A stretch of DNA of 64,000 nucleotides from Gadus chalcogrammus (lineage: Eukaryota; Chordata; Actinopteri; Gadiformes; Gadidae). The DNA is taken from positions 15,248,761 through 15,312,760 of the forward strand of contig NC_079432.1 of the NCBI RefSeq assembly GCF_026213295.1, written 5' to 3'. The number at the start of each line of letters is the position of its first letter. The stretch's first letter is position 1. A model generated the notes under the pieces. The model ran no database searches and was not told the origin of the DNA. It worked only from the letters and a program-made list of their open reading frames with translations. Of the stretch, positions 28,601 through 63,399 are shown in pieces. Both the position numbers and the translations under genes were made by a program.

Positions 28601-30214
28601 GGCTTCGTGGAAGGGCGTTGCTCCCTGGTTGTCGGTCTTGTTCACTGACGCTCCAGACCTCAGAAGGAGCTCCACCATGCGCAGGCTTTTACTTTCACAT
28701 GCTGAAAGACACCATTCAGCTTACCGAACAATAGCGCTTTGACGGTTTTTCTGTCCTGCCTGTGTCCTTTGTCAAGATGAGTCCTTTTCTGGTTTTGCCA
28801 CACCATGTAACAGTCTAATTACAACTTTATTCTAGTGCATACCATTAATAAGCAGGTGAGGATGCCTAAAGGTAGACATTGTAGGACATTTGGGATCAAA
28901 CCCAGAATCTTTCGGCTGAGAGTCAAAGCCCCTACCTAACCACTGACCAGACTGCCCTTCTTAATCAGAACCACTCAGTAGAATATAAGATGTTTGCCTG
29001 AGTGAAGGGTAAAAGGAAAGAGCGGTACTTTTTGTGCTTTTTTGAAAACTTGTCTGCTCTTCTCCATCTTTGGAGAGAGGGGGATTGGGTTACCTCTGAA
29101 CAGCGGACCGACTCGTTCCTTGTTGCAGATGTTGGGGTCGGCGCCATGCTCCAGGAGATACTCAACACAGGAGACATGTCCTCGGTATGCAGCCAGGAGA
29201 AGGGCGGTCTGGTTTATGGGGCTACATCTGTTCACCATGTCAGGAAACCCTACGGAGAGAAAGAGAGGACAAACTTAATACAATTCTTCTTTACACTGCT
29301 GCCTGTACTTGATTCTAGTGTTCTAGTCATTTAGCAGACAATATTATCCAAAGCGACTTAGAGTCACATTTTTCAGATACCACATCAATGGGTAGGTAGA
29401 GGTGCTTTCTTGCTCAAAGATGACTACAGTTAGACTTTTGAACCCAGCACCTTTCAGTTGGGAGTCCAACCCTGTAGTATACACAACCCTGTACACTGCC
29501 CCGAGGATTAACAGACCATGAGAAAAACAAATGAAGGACAAGGCTCTGAGGTATTTGCTTGAAAGTGGTAAAGTGGTGGTGATAGGACACTAGTCTTACT
29601 TTCTATCAGGATCATGAGGCATCCCAGCTCGCCAAAGTAAGCGGCTTCGTGGAGAGCGGTCCAGCCGTCAGTATTGGTGGCCGTCGAGCTGCCTGAGTTT
29701 TCCTTTACAAAAGCCAACAAAGCTCCTTCATTCTGGTCGCGGATCATTATCTGCATCTCAATGAAGAGGCTGCAAGTAAAGTAAAAATGAGTCATTTTAT
29801 GATATTATTCTTCCAGTGGGTTAGTGTTTTGCCTTGTGTTAAGTGAATGTTTTGAGTCATTTATTTATTAATTTTTTTCATTGTATTTTAATTAGTAATA
29901 GTCATACTGTGCTAGGGGTAGGTGTAGTTAGGGATAGGTTTGCTAGGGTTTGGGTTAGTTAGGGATGACGTAGCTAGATTAAAGGCTGGCACATAGAGTT
30001 TGTTTGTGGGGGAATCATACTCATGTTTAAAAGAGGGGCGTAGACTTGGACTTGGACTTGGACTTGGACTTGGACACGGTGTCCTTGGCGCATCAGGAGG
30101 GGGATGAATGTAATGGCTCTCAAGGAATTCCTCAGTTAGACTTCTTTCGATGGCTAACTGTAAGAGCTCCTCATCAGACAGGTTATTGTAGGCAGTGTAG
30201 TCTTCAAACTCCAT
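25656..30214 (-). CDS. asb2: ASB2-like ankyrin repeat and SOCS box protein, tandem copy B
   Basis: Exons on the minus strand: first coding exon from ATG 30214 to about 29970 (donor uncertain), 29769-29600, 29249-29094, 28701-28456, 28226-28055, 27671-27339, 26973-26739, 26203-26053 and 25798-25656. The ubiquitin-interacting motif (LSDEELLQLAIERSL), ankyrin repeats, FCEAISKNSIKEPG and SOCS box (LMQLCRLRIRKILG) follow the ASB2 order. Internal exons of 246 and 172 bp have exactly the same lengths as in copy A, supporting tandem duplication. Two differences stand out: the copy-A exon with NFAGTVSHF is missing, and the large 583-bp exon of copy A is split here by an intron (26974-27338). The CWAGP-type segment is also less conserved. 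The N-terminal region has a Pro-Ser repeat (30038-30075). It probably also recruits Cullin-5; substrate unknown. Confidence 0.9.
28840..28955 (+). repeat. Family-A SINE-like repeat in asb2 copy B intron
   Basis: Contains GATGCCTAAAGGTAGACATT, GGGATCAAACCCAGAATC and CCTAACCACTGACCAGAC. Confidence 0.6.
29320..29505 (+). repeat. Family-A SINE-like repeat in asb2 copy B intron
   Basis: Has the fuller head TTTAGCAGACAATATTATCC, AAAGCGACTTAGAG and the body CTTGCTCAAAGATGACTACA. Confidence 0.65.
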
Positions 30215-30610
30215 GTTTGGCACAGTGGTATCAGGTCCAGCTGCAGTGAAGACCGCATGCCCGGTCGGGATGGAGAATAAATGGGTATTCAGGTCACACA
30301 GCGTGTACATAAAAGATATTACTAAGCCATACAAGTAACATGTAAATACTACAAATATACGCATACTCAACTCATGATATAATAATGCTTATTTTATTGC
30401 ACTAAATATTTTGATCCTAGCTGGACCAAAAGTACATCCACGGGTCGCCAAAAGTGAAAAGAATTTGACGCCCTTTATTTTCCTTTTCACTTTTACTTGC
30501 AATCATCTATATTTACTCGGAATGTAGTGAACAAATCATTGTAAAGATGGTCTGTCCCTGCATTAAGCAAAAATCTTTATTTATAGTAATCTGAAATTCA
30601 AGCCATTGAA

Positions 30611-30887: not shown

Positions 30888-31379
30888 CACACTTCAAAGC
30901 ACCAGCTACACTAACTAGAGTCCTACCTTTCAGAACAAATCCGTCAGGGGTTCAGAAAGGCTTTCCAAGCTGTCTCCAGACACCTGTCAGGGCCCTTTGG
31001 CTGCTCAGGCTGTTGTCTAGCCATGGGATATTTTATTCTAGCAATATGCTAGCTATTAAGGGGGAGTGGTCACATTTTGCTGACCTAGTTTGAACTATGA
31101 AAACAGATTGAACTACAGGCCAGATCAACACTTCGTCCTGCCAGGCAGTAGCAAGTACTGGTTACTGGTTCGGTTTTGAATGGCTTAAGAAAAGAAGGAC
31201 TTCAAAAAATTATTATGATCTGTTTTAACTGGTCAAGTATTTCTGTAGGTATTGTTGGAATTGTTATTTATTTATTATATTTGTATTAATTATTATTATT
31301 GTATATTTATGTTGACATACAATATTGTGTTTGTCTGTGTATACAGAAAATATCAACATATGGGGATTTGGCCTTAATC

Positions 31380-32330
31380 CCCAGCCTCAACACTGAATGA
31401 CTACCGGCCCATAGCCCTCACGCCCATCACGATTAAGCGTTTAAATGGTTGGTCAAGGCTCATATTACATCCAGTCTCCCAACTTGACCCATTACAGTTT
31501 GCATATCATCCCAAACGCTCCACTGATGATGCCATAGCTACAGCACTCCGCCTATGGCTGGCTCATCCTGAAAACAAATACAGTGACATGCGGATGCTGT
31601 TCATTGACTTCAGCTCCGCCTTCAACACAGTCATCCCCTGTCACCTGGTGAATATACTCAGCTTAATAGGCATCAGCACACCACTTTGCAACTGGCTACT
31701 GGATTTCCTTACCGACAAGACCACAGACAGTAAGTGTTGGAAAAAACTCCTCAGAGACCACCATCATGAACACCGGGGTCCCCCCTGGATGTGTGTTGTT
31801 GAGCCCTCTGTTGTTCACACTGACGACACATGACGGTTGTGCCAGACACAATTGAAAACACACCATCAAATTCGCAGATGATACAACAGTGGTGGGCCTC
31901 ATCAGCGACGGCGACGACTCAGCCTACAGAGGAGGTACATCAACTCATCAACTGGTGTGACATCAATAGTCATCAACTCAACGTCTTCAAAACAAAATAA
32001 AAAACAGTGGACTTGAGGAAGAAACAAAAACCACGCACCCCACTCAGCATCAATGGCAGTGCAGTGGAGTCTGTGAAAAGCACCATGTTCCTGGGGGTGC
32101 ATGTCACAGAGGACCTGACATGGTCCGCCAACACCACCTCCATAGTCAAGAAGGCACAGCAACGCCTCCACTTCCTTCGCCGGATGAGAGCTGACCTCCC
32201 CCTTCTGCCCTCACCACCGTTTACAGGGGTGCCATCGGGAGCATCCTCACCAGCGACCCCTCAGTCTGGTACGGCAGCTACCCTGCTGCTGACCAGAAGG
32301 CTCTACGGGGGGGTGGTGAGGGTGACGGGT
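31380..32330 (+). mobile_element. LINE reverse transcriptase fragment, 5' part of a split copy
   Basis: Translated pieces, with several frame changes, read [41 protein letters not shown] and MFLGVHVTEDLTW. These are hallmarks of a fish non-LTR retrotransposon reverse transcriptase (CR1/Rex1-like; clade not tested). The copy is 5'-truncated and broken. Its last part reads ..SVWYGSYPAADQKAL and stops near 32330; the continuation of the same protein appears at 39373-39620. Confidence 0.8.
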
Positions 32331-32384
32331 ACAGGTCCTGGATGGTTGGTTGGGCTCATCTGGTGAAAAGCCAACCAAGCTTCC

Positions 32385-32634
32385 TGATCCTGATCGTGTA
32401 TCATTATCTGCATCTCAGTGAAGTCTCTGCAAGTTAAGTCAAAATGAGTCATGTCGACGAGTCATTATTCATTGAGTCATTATTATTACATTATTCTTCC
32501 GGTATTATGACATGGCTGGGTTCGTTTTTTGCCAACTGTTTAGTGAATGTTTTGAGTTAAAGAGTATAATGGGGGGGGGGGGGTTCTTGTACTTTCCTAA
32601 ATGTTTATTTCAATGTATTTTAATTAGTAATAGT
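32385..32634 (-). pseudogene. Partial asb2 copy-B duplicate, left part
   Basis: Matches 29745-29905 of asb2 copy B: about 37 bp of exon 2, its acceptor (TCTGCATCTCAGTGAAG versus TCTGCATCTCAATGAAG) and intron 1 sequence up to GTAATAGTCA. It lies inside the split LINE and continues at 38853. It cannot encode a product. Confidence 0.8.
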
Positions 32635-32939
32635 CAGTGGCGTTTCTACATTAGGGGCAGGTGGGGCAGTGCCCCACCAGACCCACGAGATGGCGCTGTT
32701 GAGCAGAAGGCTCAATCCATTCCTACTTCGTGGCAAACTATATATATATATTTATATGCAAAGTAGCGTACATATTTGTGTGAATAAACTTGACTCACAA
32801 GCATTATTGCCTTGTTTTGGAGTAATTTGATTCGTGTGTTCTACTGCCTGTGTGCTTGCTTGAATGAACGTTATGTCTATATTTCCGTTTCCTGTTTCCG
32901 GAGGGGCAAAGACCCACGCTGCCCCACCGTTACCATAGA
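32635..32939 (+). mobile_element. hAT remnant, left part
   Basis: Begins CAGTGGCGTTTCTACA, a typical hAT terminus, directly where the asb2 duplicate is interrupted. The preceding 8 bp (GTAATAGT) resemble GGAATAGT at 38852-38859. It is interrupted by the DIRS element and resumes at 38401. Confidence 0.65.
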
Positions 32940-32992
32940 AACGATAGTTATGTTATTATAACTCTAGTTCTATGATTGTAGGCGTAGCCGTC

Positions 32993-33150
32993 TAGGCTTC
33001 GCCTTATGGGCTTGTCCCGTGCGCGCGCTCGCGCGCGCTGAAAATTCAAACTATGCACCTATCAGCGTGGGCACCGCCCACATTTCCCACGGTATCGTGT
33101 CTATATAACGCGGTGTATACCGTCGCTCATCCTCCACGCTTTTCTTTCAG
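32993..33150. repeat. DIRS inverted terminal repeat, end distal to gag
   Basis: Matches the reverse complement of about 38215-38356 with one substitution (GCGCTCGCGC versus GCGCTTGCGC) and a small indel near 33140. Confidence 0.93.
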
Positions 33151-33177
33151 CATTTGGAGGGTACAGCAGGTGGGAAA

Positions 33178-33277
33178 CTAGACGGCTACGCCTACAATCA
33201 TAGAACTAGAGTTATAATAACATAACTATCGTTCTATTTCATGTAGGCTACGCCGTCTAGGCTTCGCCTTATGGGCT
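33178..33277. repeat. DIRS internal complementary region
   Basis: 33178-33233 is the exact 56-nt reverse complement of the left terminus (32940-32995). 33231-33277 is the 47-nt reverse complement of the right terminus (38354-38400). The two halves share the trinucleotide GTT, so the region spells the predicted circle junction of the two ends. Confidence 0.95.
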
Positions 33278-33800
33278 AAGGTGAAGCTGCGAGCGGAGCC
33301 CGATCAATGTACTCCTGCTGGACCCCAGTCAAAACGACCTAAGTCACCAGAACACATTAAGACTCAAAAAGCCAAGGAAGTGTAAAACACAACAGCTTTA
33401 TAAAAACTAATTCCTCCTAGATCAAGCAAGGCAATGATCAAGGGAGAAAAAAGTGAGTCTGTAAAGACTCCGGCTCTATTCCGTGCTTCATGGAACCCAT
33501 GAAAAGGAAAAGAAAACCAGAGCAACACGGTTTCCATTAGGTCCGCTACCACCGGGGGCGGAGCTACGGAATTCGGCTCTCCAATAATGGGACTCTCTCG
33601 GCCGTTTCTTATTTGAAGAAAACGGCGGGAGTGCCTCACTGGTAAACAAACCCACCAGACAATTGGCGAGCCAATAGAAAACCCCCTAGCCTGTTTTTCA
33701 TTTGAAAATAGGTGGGAGAGTAAGAGACTGGTAATCAAGACCAACTCGCCAGCCGGCGAGAGGAAATCCAACCACGCCGCTTTAAAGAACATCTATATTC

Positions 33801-36800
33801 TTAAGCCGTAAAAGGGGTCCCGGACTCTAGCACAGAGTTGCCGAGTGAGCCCCTGGACATGTCTAACATGTAAAAACGGACAAAGGGGCCGGGGGAAGAC
33901 CAAGACGCAGCCGCGCAGATGTCTTCCACCGAAACGCCCTTAAGTAGAGCCGTTGAAGCGGCCACGCTCCGCGTGGAGTGAGCTTTAACGCCCAACGGTG
34001 GCGCCAAGCCCTGCCGAGAGTAGGCTAGGCAAACACCCTCACATACCCAGCGAGAAAACCGCTGCTTAGAGAGAGCGCGGCCCCTGCTAGCGTCGCTATA
34101 ACACACAAACAACTGTTGTGTGGAGCGGAACGCTGCCGAGCGATTCACGTACATAGCCAACGCCCGAACCGGGCACAGGAGATGCAACTCAGCCTCCGCC
34201 TCACTAGAATGAGGCGGGGGGTGAAAAGCCTTAAGCACAATATCCCTCGACCGAAAATAACTATTAATGTTCTTCGGGAGGAACGCAGGATTAGGTCTGA
34301 GCAACGCGAAGGAGCTGTCCTCGTTTAGCAACAAGCAACTCGGGCTGACAGACAGAGCGGTTAGCTCACCGGCCCGCTTGGCAGAAACCAAGGCCAACAA
34401 GAGCGCCGTCTTAAATGACAGGGCATCCAAAGGGGCCTGGGAGAGAGGCTCGAAAGGATCCCTGGACAATCCGCGCAACACGGTGGGGAGATCCCAGCGT
34501 GGTGTAAGCACGCGTGAAACAGGCCTAACCCGTCTAGCCCCACGCAAGAATCTCTTGACCAGTGGATGGCTGAAGATCGGTCCACCATCACAGCCTGCAT
34601 GGCCAGCCGAAACGGCTGCCGCATAGACCTTGATAGTGGAGAAGGCCAAACCTTTTTCCAATAAGTTTTGCAGAAACGAAAGCACGCTTCCCACCTCGCA
34701 TTGAGATGGGACAGCGTGGTTCGTCTCACACCAATTAGAGAAGGCGCACCACTTCGCCGCATAGAGGGAAGAAGTAGAAGGCGCACGAGCACTCTGAATA
34801 GTGTTGATAACCGTCTCAGGCAAACCTTTGCCCTGCAGGATCAACCTCTCAGGAGCCAAACCAACAGCCGTCCCGAGACATCGGGCGGGTGGTGCACCGT
34901 CCCGTGGGCCTGTGAAAGCGCATCCGGCCTGAATGGTACTGGCCAAGGCGCCGACAACGAGAGCGCGGCCAGCTCTGGAAACCACAGAGCTGAACGGTTC
35001 TCCGGGGCCACTAATATCAGGGACAGTCTCTCCTGTCTGACCCGTTCCAGAAGAGGAAGGATCAGCTGGAGCGGGGGAAACGCATACAAGAGAGCCCGCG
35101 GCCAAGGTGTGTGTGCCAACGCATACCCCCAACGGGGGAAGATCCCGAGGGCTGAGGGAGAACCACCACCTGCAGTGCGTGTTCTCCCGGGACGCGAAGA
35201 GGTCCACCTGCGCTGTCCCGAACCTCTGCCAGATCAGTCTGACAATGTCGGGATGTAACCGCCACTCGTCTCGGCGGGGACCGCCTCGAGACATGAGGTC
35301 CGCCCCAAAGTTCTGGGCGCCCGCGATATGCAGGGCTCTCAGACTGCGGAGATACTGATGAGCCCAAAGCCAGAGCTCGACCGCCTTTCGGTGGAGAGCA
35401 GGGGAGCGGACTCCCCCCTGTCTGTTGATGTACGCCGCCGCCGACACGCTGTCTGTCCTGATCAGAACGTGGCGGCCGCGCACCAGGTGAAAGAAATGCA
35501 ACAGCACTTTCCTCACAGCGTCGAGCTCCAACACATTTATGTGTGCTGTAGGGGGCGTGCGCCACTCGTCTCCGACCGAGTGAGAGAGGCACGTTCCTCC
35601 CCAACCCGTCAACGAGGCGTCCGTGAAGACCACTACGTAGGACGCCACCCTGCCCAGTGGAACACCCTTGAGAAGGGCGGAGGGTCCTTTCCAATATTCC
35701 AGGTCTGGCGACACCGAACGGGGGACGAGGAGCACCCTGAGCTTGTGTCGCCTGGGGTCCAACCGTTGGCGAGCAAACCACCGCTGGAGTCTGCGCATAA
35801 AAAGCAGACCCAGGGGGACCACGGGGTGGGCAGCTGCCATCAGCCCCAACAGGCGCATGGTGGACAGTGCGGTCACGTTTCTGCGAACGAGAAAACGGGA
35901 GAGCGCCGACAGGATGGCGTCTCGCCGAGGAGGCGAAAGCATCGCAGTCATGGTGGCTGAGTCTAGGCAAAGCCCCAAGTAGACTGTCTGCCGGCTGGGG
36001 AGCGGGGAGCTCTTCTCCCAGTTGATGGCAAAACCCAGGAAGGAGAGATGGTTTATCACCAACATGGTGTCCCTTCTCGCGGTCTCTTCTGAGTTGCTCA
36101 GAATAAGCAGATCGTCTAGGTAGAAGAGAATCCTCTTTCCCTGACGTCTGAGCGGTTCCAACGCCGTCTCCACACACTTCGAGAAGGTGCGCGGAGCCAG
36201 GGAATAGCCGAACGGCAGACACTGGTACTCGTACGCCATCCCCATAAAAGCAAAGCGGAGAAACTTCCTGTGCGCCTGCCGAACAGGGACGTGGAAGTAA
36301 GCATCCTTGAGATCCAGGGATGTGAACCAATCGTCCTCTCTCACACACCGGAACAATGCTCCGACCGTGAGCATTCTGAACTTCCTCGTGGCAACGAATC
36401 TGTTGAACACGCGAAGATCCAGAATAGGTCTCATTTCCCCTGACTTCTTGGAAACCAGGAAGTAGCGGGAATAAAAACCTAGGTGAGACTCGTGGGGGGG
36501 AACGACAGTGATGGCCCCCTTTACCAAGAGACGTGCCACCTCTGCTGCCAGAGCCGTGCTCGCAGCCGGGTCCCGTAACGTGGTCTCCACCAACCCCATA
36601 AAGGGTGGGGGACAACGCTTGAACTGTATGGGATGGCCCCATCTCAACGTGGTGTCCAACCACGATGGCAGAACGCACCGCTCTTGCCAACACGCATAGC
36701 GGTTGGAGAGAGGGCGAGCCGACAGCTGAGGAAGACCGTCCAGGAATAACCCGTATTCCTCTGCCCCTACCGCCTTCACACTGCGTGTGAACCATGGGGG

Positions 36801-36971
36801 GCTCCCCACGAAAGGGAGGAGGCTCAGCGAGCGTAGGAGACGTAAAAACAACGAGCTGTCTAGACGTCGCGCTCGTGCCCGCTGAACAGGGAGCGAGCCG
36901 TCCGGCCGCAGCACCTGTGCGCATGCGCTGTCCGCAGGCTGTAGCCACAGCGCGCGGACCCATCTCCTCAC
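33801..36971 (-). CDS. DIRS reverse transcriptase, RNase H and tyrosine recombinase ORF
   Basis: Open frame of 1056 codons. Reverse transcriptase: LKDAYFHVPV at residues 221-230 and the catalytic YLDD at 284-287. RNase H: acidic set D451 (TDAS), E482 (LELDAV), D507 (RTDSVS) and D558 (NFGADLM). Tyrosine recombinase: R866 (SAKRAGEL), H998-x-x-R1001 (HSTRS) and nucleophile Y1034 (FVRFYMLDM). This domain order defines DIRS elements. Between residues about 617 and 705 the frame looks non-coding. The family-typical linker (RALLYAFPPLQLILPLLERV) is instead found in another frame at 35119-34841, so this copy appears to carry a small indel near 35120. The return at about 34850 may be the natural overlap of the polymerase and recombinase frames. 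The true start is unknown; the first ATG of the frame is given. Confidence 0.93.
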   Translation of the reverse strand: MRRWVRALWLQPADSACAQVLRPDGSLPVQRARARRLDSSLFLRLLRSLSLLPFVGSPPWFTRSVKAVGAEEYGLFLDGLPQLSARPLSNRYACWQERCVLPSWLDTTLRWGHPIQFKRCPPPFMGLVETTLRDPAASTALAAEVARLLVKGAITVVPPHESHLGFYSRYFLVSKKSGEMRPILDLRVFNRFVATRKFRMLTVGALFRCVREDDWFTSLDLKDAYFHVPVRQAHRKFLRFAFMGMAYEYQCLPFGYSLAPRTFSKCVETALEPLRRQGKRILFYLDDLLILSNSEETARRDTMLVINHLSFLGFAINWEKSSPLPSRQTVYLGLCLDSATMTAMLSPPRRDAILSALSRFLVRRNVTALSTMRLLGLMAAAHPVVPLGLLFMRRLQRWFARQRLDPRRHKLRVLLVPRSVSPDLEYWKGPSALLKGVPLGRVASYVVVFTDASLTGWGGTCLSHSVGDEWRTPPTAHINVLELDAVRKVLLHFFHLVRGRHVLIRTDSVSAAAYINRQGGVRSPALHRKAVELWLWAHQYLRSLRALHIAGAQNFGADLMSRGGPRRDEWRLHPDIVRLIWQRFGTAQVDLFASRENTHCRWWFSLSPRDLPPLGVCVGTHTLAAGSLVCVSPAPADPSSSGTGQTGETVPDISGPGEPFSSVVSRAGRALVVGALASTIQAGCAFTGPRDGAPPARCLGTAVGLAPERLILQGKGLPETVINTIQSARAPSTSSLYAAKWCAFSNWCETNHAVPSQCEVGSVLSFLQNLLEKGLAFSTIKVYAAAVSAGHAGCDGGPIFSHPLVKRFLRGARRVRPVSRVLTPRWDLPTVLRGLSRDPFEPLSQAPLDALSFKTALLLALVSAKRAGELTALSVSPSCLLLNEDSSFALLRPNPAFLPKNINSYFRSRDIVLKAFHPPPHSSEAEAELHLLCPVRALAMYVNRSAAFRSTQQLFVCYSDASRGRALSKQRFSRWVCEGVCLAYSRQGLAPPLGVKAHSTRSVAASTALLKGVSVEDICAAASWSSPGPFVRFYMLDMSRGSLGNSVLESGTPFTA

Positions 36972-37400
36972 CTATAATGTGGGGAACCAGGAGACCGGTA
37001 CAAGCGGCCGTATCCACGGGCTCGTGCAACGAGTCTCTGATCCGTCCACGAGGCTCCAAGGGACGCCGCTTCTTAGAAGCAGGTGAACCAGAGGCCATGT
37101 GAACACGCCGTCCGACCGCCACCCTACAGCCACCGGGCTGAGAGGGGGAAAGAGGCAACATGGAGGAGCGCACCACAAGCGTAGGACGCAGGTGGCCTGG
37201 GGAATATCGCTCTTTAGGTACCATGTACTGCCGTTCGGCCGAACGGTCTTTACTCTTTTCTTTAATATGGAAAGAAAAAGTAGGAGCAAGCGTCCGGAAC
37301 TTCCCGGTCCGTGGCGCTGCTGCTCTCCCCGTGCGCGGCGGCTGCGGCTGCTGCACCGGGGCTGGAGTCGGAGGCGGCCCCATGGAACGCTGGGACCGGC

Positions 37401-38213
37401 CTAGACCCCGCTTCCTCGCAGCCTGCTGGCGGGAGGAGCCCGTGAGAATCGTCCCGAACCGGGAACGATTCTCACCTCCACGTTGGTGAAATCCGTGTAG
37501 GATCTTACCGGAGCCTTCAGGGTCGAAGGGTCCTCACCGGCAGCAATAATCAAGTGCTGCAAAGGCGGGAACAAGGGGCACTGGGTAACCCGCCGGGAAA
37601 AAGATGGGGTGCGAAAGCACTCGCCCTGCATATCGTCAGATACGGGGGCGAGAGGCGGGGCCGGCATGGGAATCCCTTTGATGGCCGCCGCCTCACCCAT
37701 GATCTCCCGGAAGAGATCGGTCATCCGGCGCGGACCCTCGTGTTGTATGACGGTGGCGGTTGTAACCCGAGAGCGGGAAAAACCGGACGCCGAGTCGCCG
37801 AAGACGTCGTCCAGGGAGGCGTCGATGATGCCATCGTCGACGTCAGGTCCGAATAGGTCGATGGCGTCAGCCATTTCCACCGCAGGGGAAAAGAAGAGAT
37901 GCCTGGAGAGGATCCCCTCTTCAGGCAGCTCCCGGCAGGCGACACAGGAGACGGGGGCCGCCATAGCAGCCGCGGCGTGGTCGGCGCCGAGGCACCAAAA
38001 GCACGCCAAGTGCCCGTCACCCGGTGCCAGGGAGGCGGGACAGGAGGCGCATAGGAGTCCTGAAAAGGACCTAGCTCTAGGAGCGCTCTCAGGTGGCCCT
38101 GAAAAGGGCCGTTTGTCCGCGGCCTCGCCCGAGCCGCTGCCACCGGCTTGGGAGATCCGTGTTGAAGTTCTCATCTTCTTAATAGTAGTTCTCAATTTCT
38201 CGCTGATAAGCAC
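37401..38213 (-). CDS. DIRS gag-like ORF
   Basis: 270 codons, first in the element. It has a Cys-rich block (CASCPASLAPGDGHLACFWC, then CVACRE) and an acidic middle (DLFGPDVDDGIIDASLDD). The frame ends shortly after VEVRIVPGSG, while a coding-looking basic/proline-rich continuation (RQQAARKRGLGRSQRSMGPP) lies in another frame from about 37440 to 37000. A frameshift in the gag of this copy is inferred. No function beyond a nucleocapsid-like role is supported. Confidence 0.75.
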   Translation of the reverse strand: MLISEKLRTTIKKMRTSTRISQAGGSGSGEAADKRPFSGPPESAPRARSFSGLLCASCPASLAPGDGHLACFWCLGADHAAAAMAAPVSCVACRELPEEGILSRHLFFSPAVEMADAIDLFGPDVDDGIIDASLDDVFGDSASGFSRSRVTTATVIQHEGPRRMTDLFREIMGEAAAIKGIPMPAPPLAPVSDDMQGECFRTPSFSRRVTQCPLFPPLQHLIIAAGEDPSTLKAPVRSYTDFTNVEVRIVPGSGRFSRAPPASRLRGSGV

Positions 38214-38400
38214 AAGTGCTGAAAGAAAAGGGAGGATGAGCGACGGTATACACCGCGTTATATAGACACGATACCGTGGGAAATGTGGGCGGTGCCCACG
38301 CTGATAGGTGCATAGTTTGAATTTTCAGCGCGCGCAAGCGCGCGCACGGGACAAGCCCATAAGGCGAAGCCTAGACGGCGTAGCCTACATGAAATAGAAC

Positions 38401-38851
38401 ACCAATGAGCGCGAACCACGCCGGCCAAAGTTAACATTGAGGCTTGGGGCAATTTCAAATTTGCCCCTAGACGTTAACTGCGTAATCTACGTATTCTACG
38501 TAATGTAGACTGGTAATGTAGACGATGGGACAGAAGAGACTGAACGCCCTCTCCATGCTTTCTATTGAAAACACCTTCATTAATGGACTGTTGGATTTTA
38601 ACGACAAAGTAATCGAGAGGTTTGCTCAAGCAAAGAACCGTTGAGCCAACTTCCTTTTTAAGTGATCGGCATTGGTGAGTCAAAACCTTTTTTTTTTTGA
38701 GCTGAAGGAGATCGTCTTTTTTGTTTAATAAATTATGGAAGTTATTATAATAATAAATAATAATACATTTAATTTAGAGGCGCCTTTCAAGACACCCAAG
38801 GTCACCTTACAGAGCATATAGTCATCATTCAAAAATATGTAAAACAGACTA
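38401..38851 (+). mobile_element. hAT remnant, right part, with transposase C-terminus
   Basis: 38526-38644 (+) encodes RLNALSMLSIENTFINGLL and then DFNDKVIERFAQAKNR followed by a stop. This is the typical C-terminal end of a hAT-family (TTF-type zinc finger) transposase. The rest of the transposase is missing, so it is an internally deleted copy. The right terminus is not clear; the sequence before GGAATAGT is taken as its end. Confidence 0.7.
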
Positions 38852-38852
38852 G

Positions 38853-39372
38853 GAATAGTCTAGACTAAAGGCTGGCACAAGAGTGTGTTTGGGGGGGATT
38901 CATACTCATGTTTAAAAGAGGGGCGTGGACTTGGAATTGGACACGATGTCCCCGGTGCATCAGGAGGGGGAGGAATGTGTCAGCTCTCATAGAATTCCTG
39001 AGACTTCTTTCGATGGCTAACTAAGAGCTCCTCATCAGACAGGTTACAGTACTAGGCAGTGTAGTCTTCAAACTCCATGTTTGGCTCAGCGGTATCAGGT
39101 GCAGCTGCAGTGAAGACTGCATGCCCGGTCGGGATGGAGAATAAATGGGTTTTCAGAACACAAAGCATGTACATAAAATATATCACTAAGGTATAAAGTT
39201 ACATGTGAATACTACTGGACCAAAAGTACATCCACGAGTCGCAAAAAGTGAAAATGTTTCGGCACCAAAATAGGACCCCTTTAGTTTCCTTTTCACTTTA
39301 ACTTACAATCTCCGTTATCTTCTAAGAATGCAAAACACCTCAACGTAAAGATTGTCTCTCCCTGCAATGAGC
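38853..39372 (-). pseudogene. Partial asb2 copy-B duplicate, right part (exon 1)
   Basis: Closely matches 29970-30557 of asb2 copy B, including the whole first coding exon. On the minus strand it starts MEFEDYTA and then meets a TAG stop codon at codon 9, followed by frame disruptions. The upstream non-coding sequence matches to about 30555. It is a dead fragment, not a third gene. Confidence 0.88.
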
Positions 39373-39850
39373 AAGACACCGCTACAGAGCGTGGTAGGAC
39401 AGCAGAGAAGATGAACAGATCAGCCCAACCTTCCATCCAGGAACTGTACCCGTCGTCCCGAGACTCCCGCCGATGCAAGAGAGCCATCACCACCATCAAA
39501 GACCCCGCCCACCCAGCACACCAACTGATCACCCTCCTGCCATCAGGCCAGCGCTGCCGCAGCGTGCGGTGCAGGACTACCAGACTCAGCAACAGCTTTT
39601 TCCCGGAGGCCATCGTCAACTCACTCAAGTAAATCCATGAACATTCTGTATACACTGCTCTTTTTATGCACAATAACTTATAGTCATAATAAAGTGCAAC
39701 TGTATCTCCATGCTGCTCTTCTATGGTATTGTTATTATGTTAAATGCTATATGTGGTATATATATTAATAGCACATTTGGAGCATGGTTCAACGCAATTC
39801 CGTCCCTTTATGTAACTTGTTGCTGACAATAAAGTTCACTTTGACTTTAG
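39373..39850 (+). mobile_element. LINE 3' part of the split copy
   Basis: Continues the protein interrupted at 32330: INRSAQPSIQELYPSSRDSR, then LITLLPSGQRCRSVRCRTTR and RLSNSFFPEAIVNSLK with stop at about 39630. The 3' tail ends GACAATAAAGTTCACTTTGAC near 39850. Confidence 0.8.
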
Positions 39851-50735: not shown

Positions 50736-51034
50736 ATCATGGTAAAACCATTGGCTATTTTAATACTTGGGGTTATACTGAGTAGTACAGTTTTATAGGT
50801 GGTGTTATGATGGTTAGCAATTGGTGGTGATTTAATAATCATCCTAATAATAATTTGCATTGTTTTAATCAGTTGGTCTTGAGTACTAAATTCAATATTG
50901 TTATTCAGAATATTATAAACATTACTTTTTCAACTATAGCGATATAGTTTCATTAATAAATGTAAACTATTATAATCATGAATAATTTACTATTCAGTAG
51001 TGTAGCTTTTATCCAAAATAATTAGTAAATTGTA

Positions 51035-51165
51035 TTTAGATACATGTCCCTGAGGAGGCTGCTACGAGTTAACATCTTGCCCGAAGATGCCTACAGGTCG
51101 ACTGCAGGGTTCAACCCCAAAACCTTTCGGCAGAGAGACAAACCCTCTAACCCCCATTTTGCAAC
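51035..51165 (+). repeat. Family-A SINE-like fragment upstream of brf1
   Basis: TACATGTCCCTGAGGAGG, CATCTTGCCCGAAGATGCC and AACCTTTCGGCAGAGAGAC follow the family order. Confidence 0.6.
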
Positions 51166-51259
51166 TCATAAGTATTGTGTTTATAATCCCTGTTTTATAA
51201 CTTATGAGTATTGTGGAATCAGTAATCATTATGTTTGTACAGGTGATTTCTCTGCCGCG

Positions 51260-63399
<12,140 letters not shown>

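What the first reader, a model, noticed from the sequence alone, without database searches (positions are those of the whole stretch)
32940..38400. Near full-length DIRS element with an exact circle-junction template
The internal complementary region (33178-33277) is the exact reverse complement of 56 nt of one terminus fused to 47 nt of the other, sharing GTT. The outer ends both carry AAC. This makes both element boundaries definable to the base. The roughly 150-bp inverted terminal repeats differ at only about two places, pointing to recent activity in this genome.
Basis: partly seen in the sequence, partly recalled or inferred. Interest (0 to 1): 0.8.

Follow-up and report, generated by a model that had tools for sequence, protein, structure and literature searches.

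The report
Ordinary fish DIRS1 retrotransposon, partly broken
This is an ordinary DIRS1-type jumping gene in a fish genome whose two ends and built-in circle template are perfectly preserved, but whose protein-coding part appears damaged.

Summary
Window 32940-38400 (5461 bp, coding on the minus strand) has inverted terminal repeats. Its 100-nt internal complementary region (33178-33277) equals 56 nt of the right terminus fused to 47 nt of the left, sharing GTT, with no mismatch. This is the published DIRS1-like anatomy; the stickleback elements GaDIRS1 and GaDIRS2 have nearly the same layout (PMC3266345 Table 3). Public proteins 98-99% identical over their matched parts exist. The gag relatives with an organism name are Boreogadus saida or Gadus morhua.

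Two corrections. The 1056-codon ORF looks like a chimera: close relatives have a 716-aa pol and a 1316-aa overlapping recombinase protein, and a frame break near 35,120 in this copy joins the two. About 165 gag codons present in the closest gag relative are missing near 37,475. So the copy has complete ends but is internally deleted and probably not autonomous. Exact ICR-terminus identity makes a fairly recent insertion likely, without dating it. Copy number, an empty allele and transcripts are untested: the genome search gave no answer in 12 attempts.

The parts
32940..38400 (-). whole DIRS1-like element, 5461 bp, read on the minus strand
   Evidence: boundaries fixed by exact ICR matches
32940..32995 (-). 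right terminus complementary to the ICR (56 nt); ends in GTT on the element strand (AAC on +)
   Evidence: 56/56 complementary to 33178-33233
32940..32966 (-). right extension (rE), 27 nt, with no counterpart in the left terminus
   Evidence: alignment of the two termini; term as defined in PMC3266345
32967..32986 (-). outer, divergent part of the right ITR (20 nt; the left counterpart is 38380-38400)
   Evidence: term as in PMC3266345
32987..33135 (-). conserved part of the right ITR, 149 nt
   Evidence: one difference from 38231-38379
33178..33277 (-). internal complementary region: right ICR 33178-33233 and left ICR 33231-33277, sharing 33231-33233 (circular junction)
33801..36971 (-). 1056-codon ORF: RT and RNase H (pol frame), then the YR frame after a frame break near 35120; a chimera compared with close relatives
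   Evidence: RVT_1 E 7.9e-24; tblastn of P0001, P0003 and P0007
34844..35122 (-). end of the pol (MT-region) frame, 93 codons, out of frame with RT/RNase H here
   Evidence: 92/93 identical to P0001 residues 624-716 in another frame
33804..34790 (-). tyrosine recombinase region: SAKRAG 34385-34368, HSTR 33980-33969, FVRFY 33884-33870
   Evidence: the catalytic roles of these residues are recalled
35107..37533 (-). overlapping open frame matching residues 78-881 of the relative P0007
   Evidence: 94.8% identical over 815 columns
37476..38213 (-). gag ORF, 246 codons matching P0121; then about 165 codons absent at about 37475
   Evidence: 99.2% identical to P0121 residues 1-246; the shared text resumes at P0121 residue 412
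38231..38379 (-). conserved part of the left ITR, with a TATATAA-like motif (seen by eye)
38354..38400 (-). left terminus complementary to the ICR (47 nt); begins with GTT on the element strand
   Evidence: 47/47 complementary to 33231-33277

Best explanation
This is a DIRS1-like tyrosine-recombinase retrotransposon in a gadid-like fish. Shown here: the ends, the ICR that holds both termini end to end, the RT and the recombinase region. Inferred, following the published DIRS model: RNA started in an ITR is reverse-transcribed; the cDNA ends that the RNA lacks are rebuilt on the ICR; the ends join into a circle across the shared GTT; the recombinase exchanges that GTT with a GTT in host DNA, leaving AAC (on +) at both ends and no wider target duplication. 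This copy appears internally deleted in gag and frame-broken in pol/YR, so it probably cannot supply its own proteins now.
For: Exact ICR/termini and shared GTT. Sizes match published teleost elements: GaDIRS1 GTT/GTT/AAC, rE 27, divergent 19, conserved 148, ICR 46-56; here rE 27, divergent 20-21, conserved 149, ICR 47-56. RVT_1 match; Ty3-G Gag-Pol chain 7q5b_A, E 1.5e-15, over residues 168-562. HSTR and the Y in 6 of 6 aligned rows, KR in 5 of 6. Close relatives P0001, P0003, P0007 and P0121. Circular cDNA of DIRS-1 is reported for a Dictyostelium agnA deletion strain (PMC5633606, passages).
Against: No second copy, empty allele or transcript was seen. RNase H and Dam-type MT score below the Pfam cut-offs and the recombinase has no Pfam match above its cut-off. 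'Broken' rests on proteins from unnamed contigs, not on DNA of other copies; P0007 itself lacks 9 residues and has 6 others relative to the window, so it is no perfect reference. An assembly error in this window is not excluded. The host is inferred from labels of related proteins.
Confidence: 0.95

Rival explanations
1. The copy is an intact autonomous element; the frame break and the gag gap are assembly or sequencing errors, or a genuine variant with one pol-YR ORF.
For: By a loose text match, 104 of the 120 listed pol relatives have YxDD-like and HSTR-like strings in one predicted protein, so one-protein readings are common in annotations.
Against: The two pol relatives closest by identity (P0001, P0003) keep the 93 MT-region residues that are out of frame here, and P0007 reads the overlapping frame without a break. 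The gag gap is about 495 nt, long for a base-call error. The residues made by the frame break occur in 0 of 120 listed pol relatives and those made by the gag junction in none of the held proteins (209 held), a weak test since most relatives are much diverged.
Confidence: 0.12
2. An old, decayed insertion whose ends look good by chance or by gene conversion.
For: The coding part appears broken.
Against: 0 differences in 103 ICR/terminus positions and 1 in 149 ITR core positions; 95-99% protein identity to the closest relatives.
Confidence: 0.08
3. A different tyrosine-recombinase element (PAT, Ngaro, Crypton) or an LTR element.
For: All share parts of the machinery, YR or RT (recalled).
Against: Terminal repeats are inverted; an ICR with 3-bp overlap is present; RT is present.
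Confidence: 0.01

Closest known systems
GaDIRS1 (Gasterosteus aculeatus), PMC3266345 Table 3 (passages seen)
   Same: GTT at both ends, AAC junction, rE 27, conserved ITR 148 (149 here), ICR 46-56 (47-56 here); long ORF overlap, as in the close relatives of this copy
Family represented by P0001 (pol), P0007 (YR protein) and P0121 (gag), unnamed ena contigs
   Same: 97-99% identical protein over the pol, YR and gag stretches, 94.8% over the overlapping frame
   Different: relatives keep the gag segment and separate, overlapping pol and YR frames; the window copy does not
DIRS-1 of Dictyostelium discoideum
   Same: ITRs, ICR with 3-bp circular junction, RT/RH/MT and YR (PMC3266345 passages)
   Different: junction TAA and conserved ITR 304 there (Table 3, DIRS1-2); different host; no sequence comparison made

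Membership tests
DIRS1-like | inverted terminal repeats | tested here: met
   159 nt, 97%
DIRS1-like | ICR complementary to both termini with a 3-bp overlap (circular junction) | tested here: met
   56 + 47 sharing GTT, 100%
DIRS1-like | reverse transcriptase | tested here: met
   RVT_1 E 7.9e-24, 84.9 bits against a cut-off of 29.6
DIRS1-like | RNase H | tested here: inconclusive
   RT_RNaseH 13.4 bits, below its cut-off of 24.8; but the Ty3 RT/RNase H chains align over residues 168-562, past the RT
DIRS1-like | methyltransferase (MT) region | tested here: inconclusive
   Dam E 0.088 in the window ORF and 0.021 in P0001, both below cut-off; the rest of the region is out of frame here
DIRS1-like | tyrosine recombinase | tested here: met
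   alignment with fish relatives: HSTR and Y in 6 of 6 rows, KR in 5 of 6; no Pfam match above cut-off, only a SAM-like integrase domain at E 0.32 in P0007
DIRS1-like | integration at a matching 3-bp site, no target duplication | tested here: inconclusive
   AAC at both ends; no empty allele available
DIRS1-like | circular cDNA intermediate | not testable with these tools
   needs DNA from tissue
PAT-like | split direct repeats | tested here: not met
   terminal repeats are inverted
Crypton | YR without reverse transcriptase (recalled) | tested here: not met
   RVT_1 present

The most novel reading that the evidence does not exclude
This is a member of a deletion-derivative subfamily that lost working gag, pol and YR genes but keeps perfect ITRs and ICR, and is mobilised in trans by intact relatives: a non-autonomous DIRS lineage in gadid fish. 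Against it, weakly: the gag junction was in none of the held proteins.
Probability: 0.12. Interest if true: 0.3.

Novelty: new member of a known kind. Interest (0 to 1): 0.12.

Why it matters
It adds a clean, base-defined teleost DIRS1 copy whose termini could be used to look for presence/absence variation and circles. It does not change the picture of the family. The useful lesson is that a single long ORF in a DIRS copy can come from a frame break across a native pol/YR overlap.

Tried and rejected

Viral contigs: a search with P0001 matched one stretch by pattern, which encoded no relative; the circle-junction pattern and the ITR pattern gave 0 exact matches each. Phage records: no match to 32940-33400. 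These collections are not of fish, so the misses say little.

An empty site inside the window: the flanks have a diverged paralogue (32366-32636 in three pieces and 38860-39374 in two, against 29709-29904 and 29974-30570). Between its pieces the paralogue has about 70 bp where the element's locus has about 760 bp besides the element, so it gives no base-exact empty site. The MAFFT alignment did not align the left pieces and adds nothing there.

A recombinase binding site in the 27-nt right extension: it holds a 6-bp inverted repeat AGTTAT/ATAACT, but such a repeat occurs in 522 of 5000 shuffles, so I dropped it. Rfam at gathering scores: 0 matches in the window.

Papers: PMC3266345, PMC5633606, PMC2685390 and PMC5941688, passages by term search; PMC4482531, abstract and section list; all others only as search listings. 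The search for Gadus morhua + DIRS + transposable element listed 8 papers, none naming this element in the title or the shown start of the abstract; these 8 were not opened. The search for circular DIRS-1 intermediates brought mostly unrelated papers.

Full report
Observation. The element spans 32940-38400. The internal complementary region 33178-33277 is exactly the right terminus (56 nt) joined to the left terminus (47 nt), sharing GTT at 33231-33233; matching stops at the predicted ends. The repeat search found the same arms. In 30 mononucleotide shuffles of the element the longest inverted exact match was 16 nt; the real element has 105. The ITRs match over 159 nt with 4 differences. Three adjacent ones (32984-32986) lie in the outer part, which the ICR repeats exactly for each end, leaving one difference in the inner 149 nt.

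Identity. RVT_1 (E 7.9e-24) lies in the long ORF, and the Ty3-G Gag-Pol chain 7q5b_A aligns over residues 168-562 (E 1.5e-15). The last third aligns with recombinase regions of fish relatives: HSTR and the final Y are kept in 6 of 6 aligned sequences, KR in 5 of 6, P0005 lacking that stretch. That these are the catalytic residues is recalled knowledge. RNase H and Dam-type MT are below the Pfam cut-offs, and for the recombinase Pfam gives only a SAM-like integrase domain at E 0.32 in P0007.

Relatives and host. With the long ORF, 925 proteins passed among the 7991 candidates scored, and the best 120 were listed; those listed with an organism name are bony fish. With gag, 89 passed and were listed; those with an organism name are Boreogadus saida, except one Gadus morhua. 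I infer a gadid-like host; the window itself carries no name.

Native gene layout. P0001 (716 aa) and P0003 match the pol frame to 35,106 and go on, 92 of 93 residues identical, in another frame from 35,122 to 34,844. P0007 (1316 aa) matches a third frame from 37,533 to 35,107 and then the frame of the 1056-codon ORF from 35,129 to 33,804. So the relatives have a pol protein and a largely overlapping YR protein, as reported for GaDIRS1 and GaDIRS2 ('long ORF overlap: Yes', PMC3266345). In the window copy a short frame break near 35,120 cuts both and joins RT/RNase H to the recombinase. A caution: by a loose text match, 104 of the 120 listed relatives have RT-like and YR-like motifs in one predicted protein, and P0007 itself differs from the window by gaps of 9 and 6 residues.

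Gag. P0121 matches 246 codons at 99.2% down to 37,476, and the shared text resumes at its residue 412, so about 165 codons (495 nt) are absent here. Of the 89 gag relatives, 39 (P0121 itself among them) match the missing segment at least in part at E 1e-5, and 50 do not. Several of the proteins are short or end early, so this is not a count of deletion carriers. The protein P0007, as predicted, begins inside that segment: its residues 1-130 match P0121 317-434.

Age. In the published model the ICR rebuilds the termini (PMC5633606 passages; see also PMC3266345), so ICR and termini should be identical at insertion. No difference in 103 aligned positions suggests a fairly young insertion, without a rate or a date. 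ITR-to-ITR identity is a weaker clock, since the outer ITR differences are built in. The broken genes mean that the copy was either damaged after insertion or mobilised in trans; I cannot separate these without other copies.

Surroundings. Parts of both flanks match a segment 2.7 to 8.9 kb upstream at 74-94% identity by piece, in a region with ankyrin-type, asb-like gene pieces (names recalled; ORFs). Between these pieces the paralogue has about 70 bp, and the element's locus about 760 bp besides the element, so the element seems nested in another insertion.

Comparison and verdict. The layout is a published DIRS1-like one to within a few bases. It is a new member of a known kind with ordinary defects. 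Copy number, empty allele and expression are untested; the genome search did not answer in 12 attempts (listed in Tried and rejected).

Noticed in passing
29709-30570 versus 32366-32636 and 38860-39374: Diverged paralogous pieces (74-94% identity by piece) flank the element; ORFs nearby resemble tandem ankyrin/asb-like genes (name recalled).
   Followed up: partly
32637-32939 and 38401-38859: About 760 bp where the paralogue has about 70 bp; near its start lies CAGTGGCGTTTCTACATTA, which looks like a hAT-type transposon end (recalled); no matching far end was found. The DIRS element seems nested in it.
   Followed up: partly
31378-32366 and 56287-57201: ORFs that look like pieces of LINE reverse transcriptases (judged by eye).
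   Followed up: no
59684-60083 and 60356-61197: Tandem arrays with 40-nt and 24-nt units.
   Followed up: no
51029-51517: ORF with a zinc-ribbon-like stretch resembling the transcription factor BRF1 (recalled).
   Followed up: no
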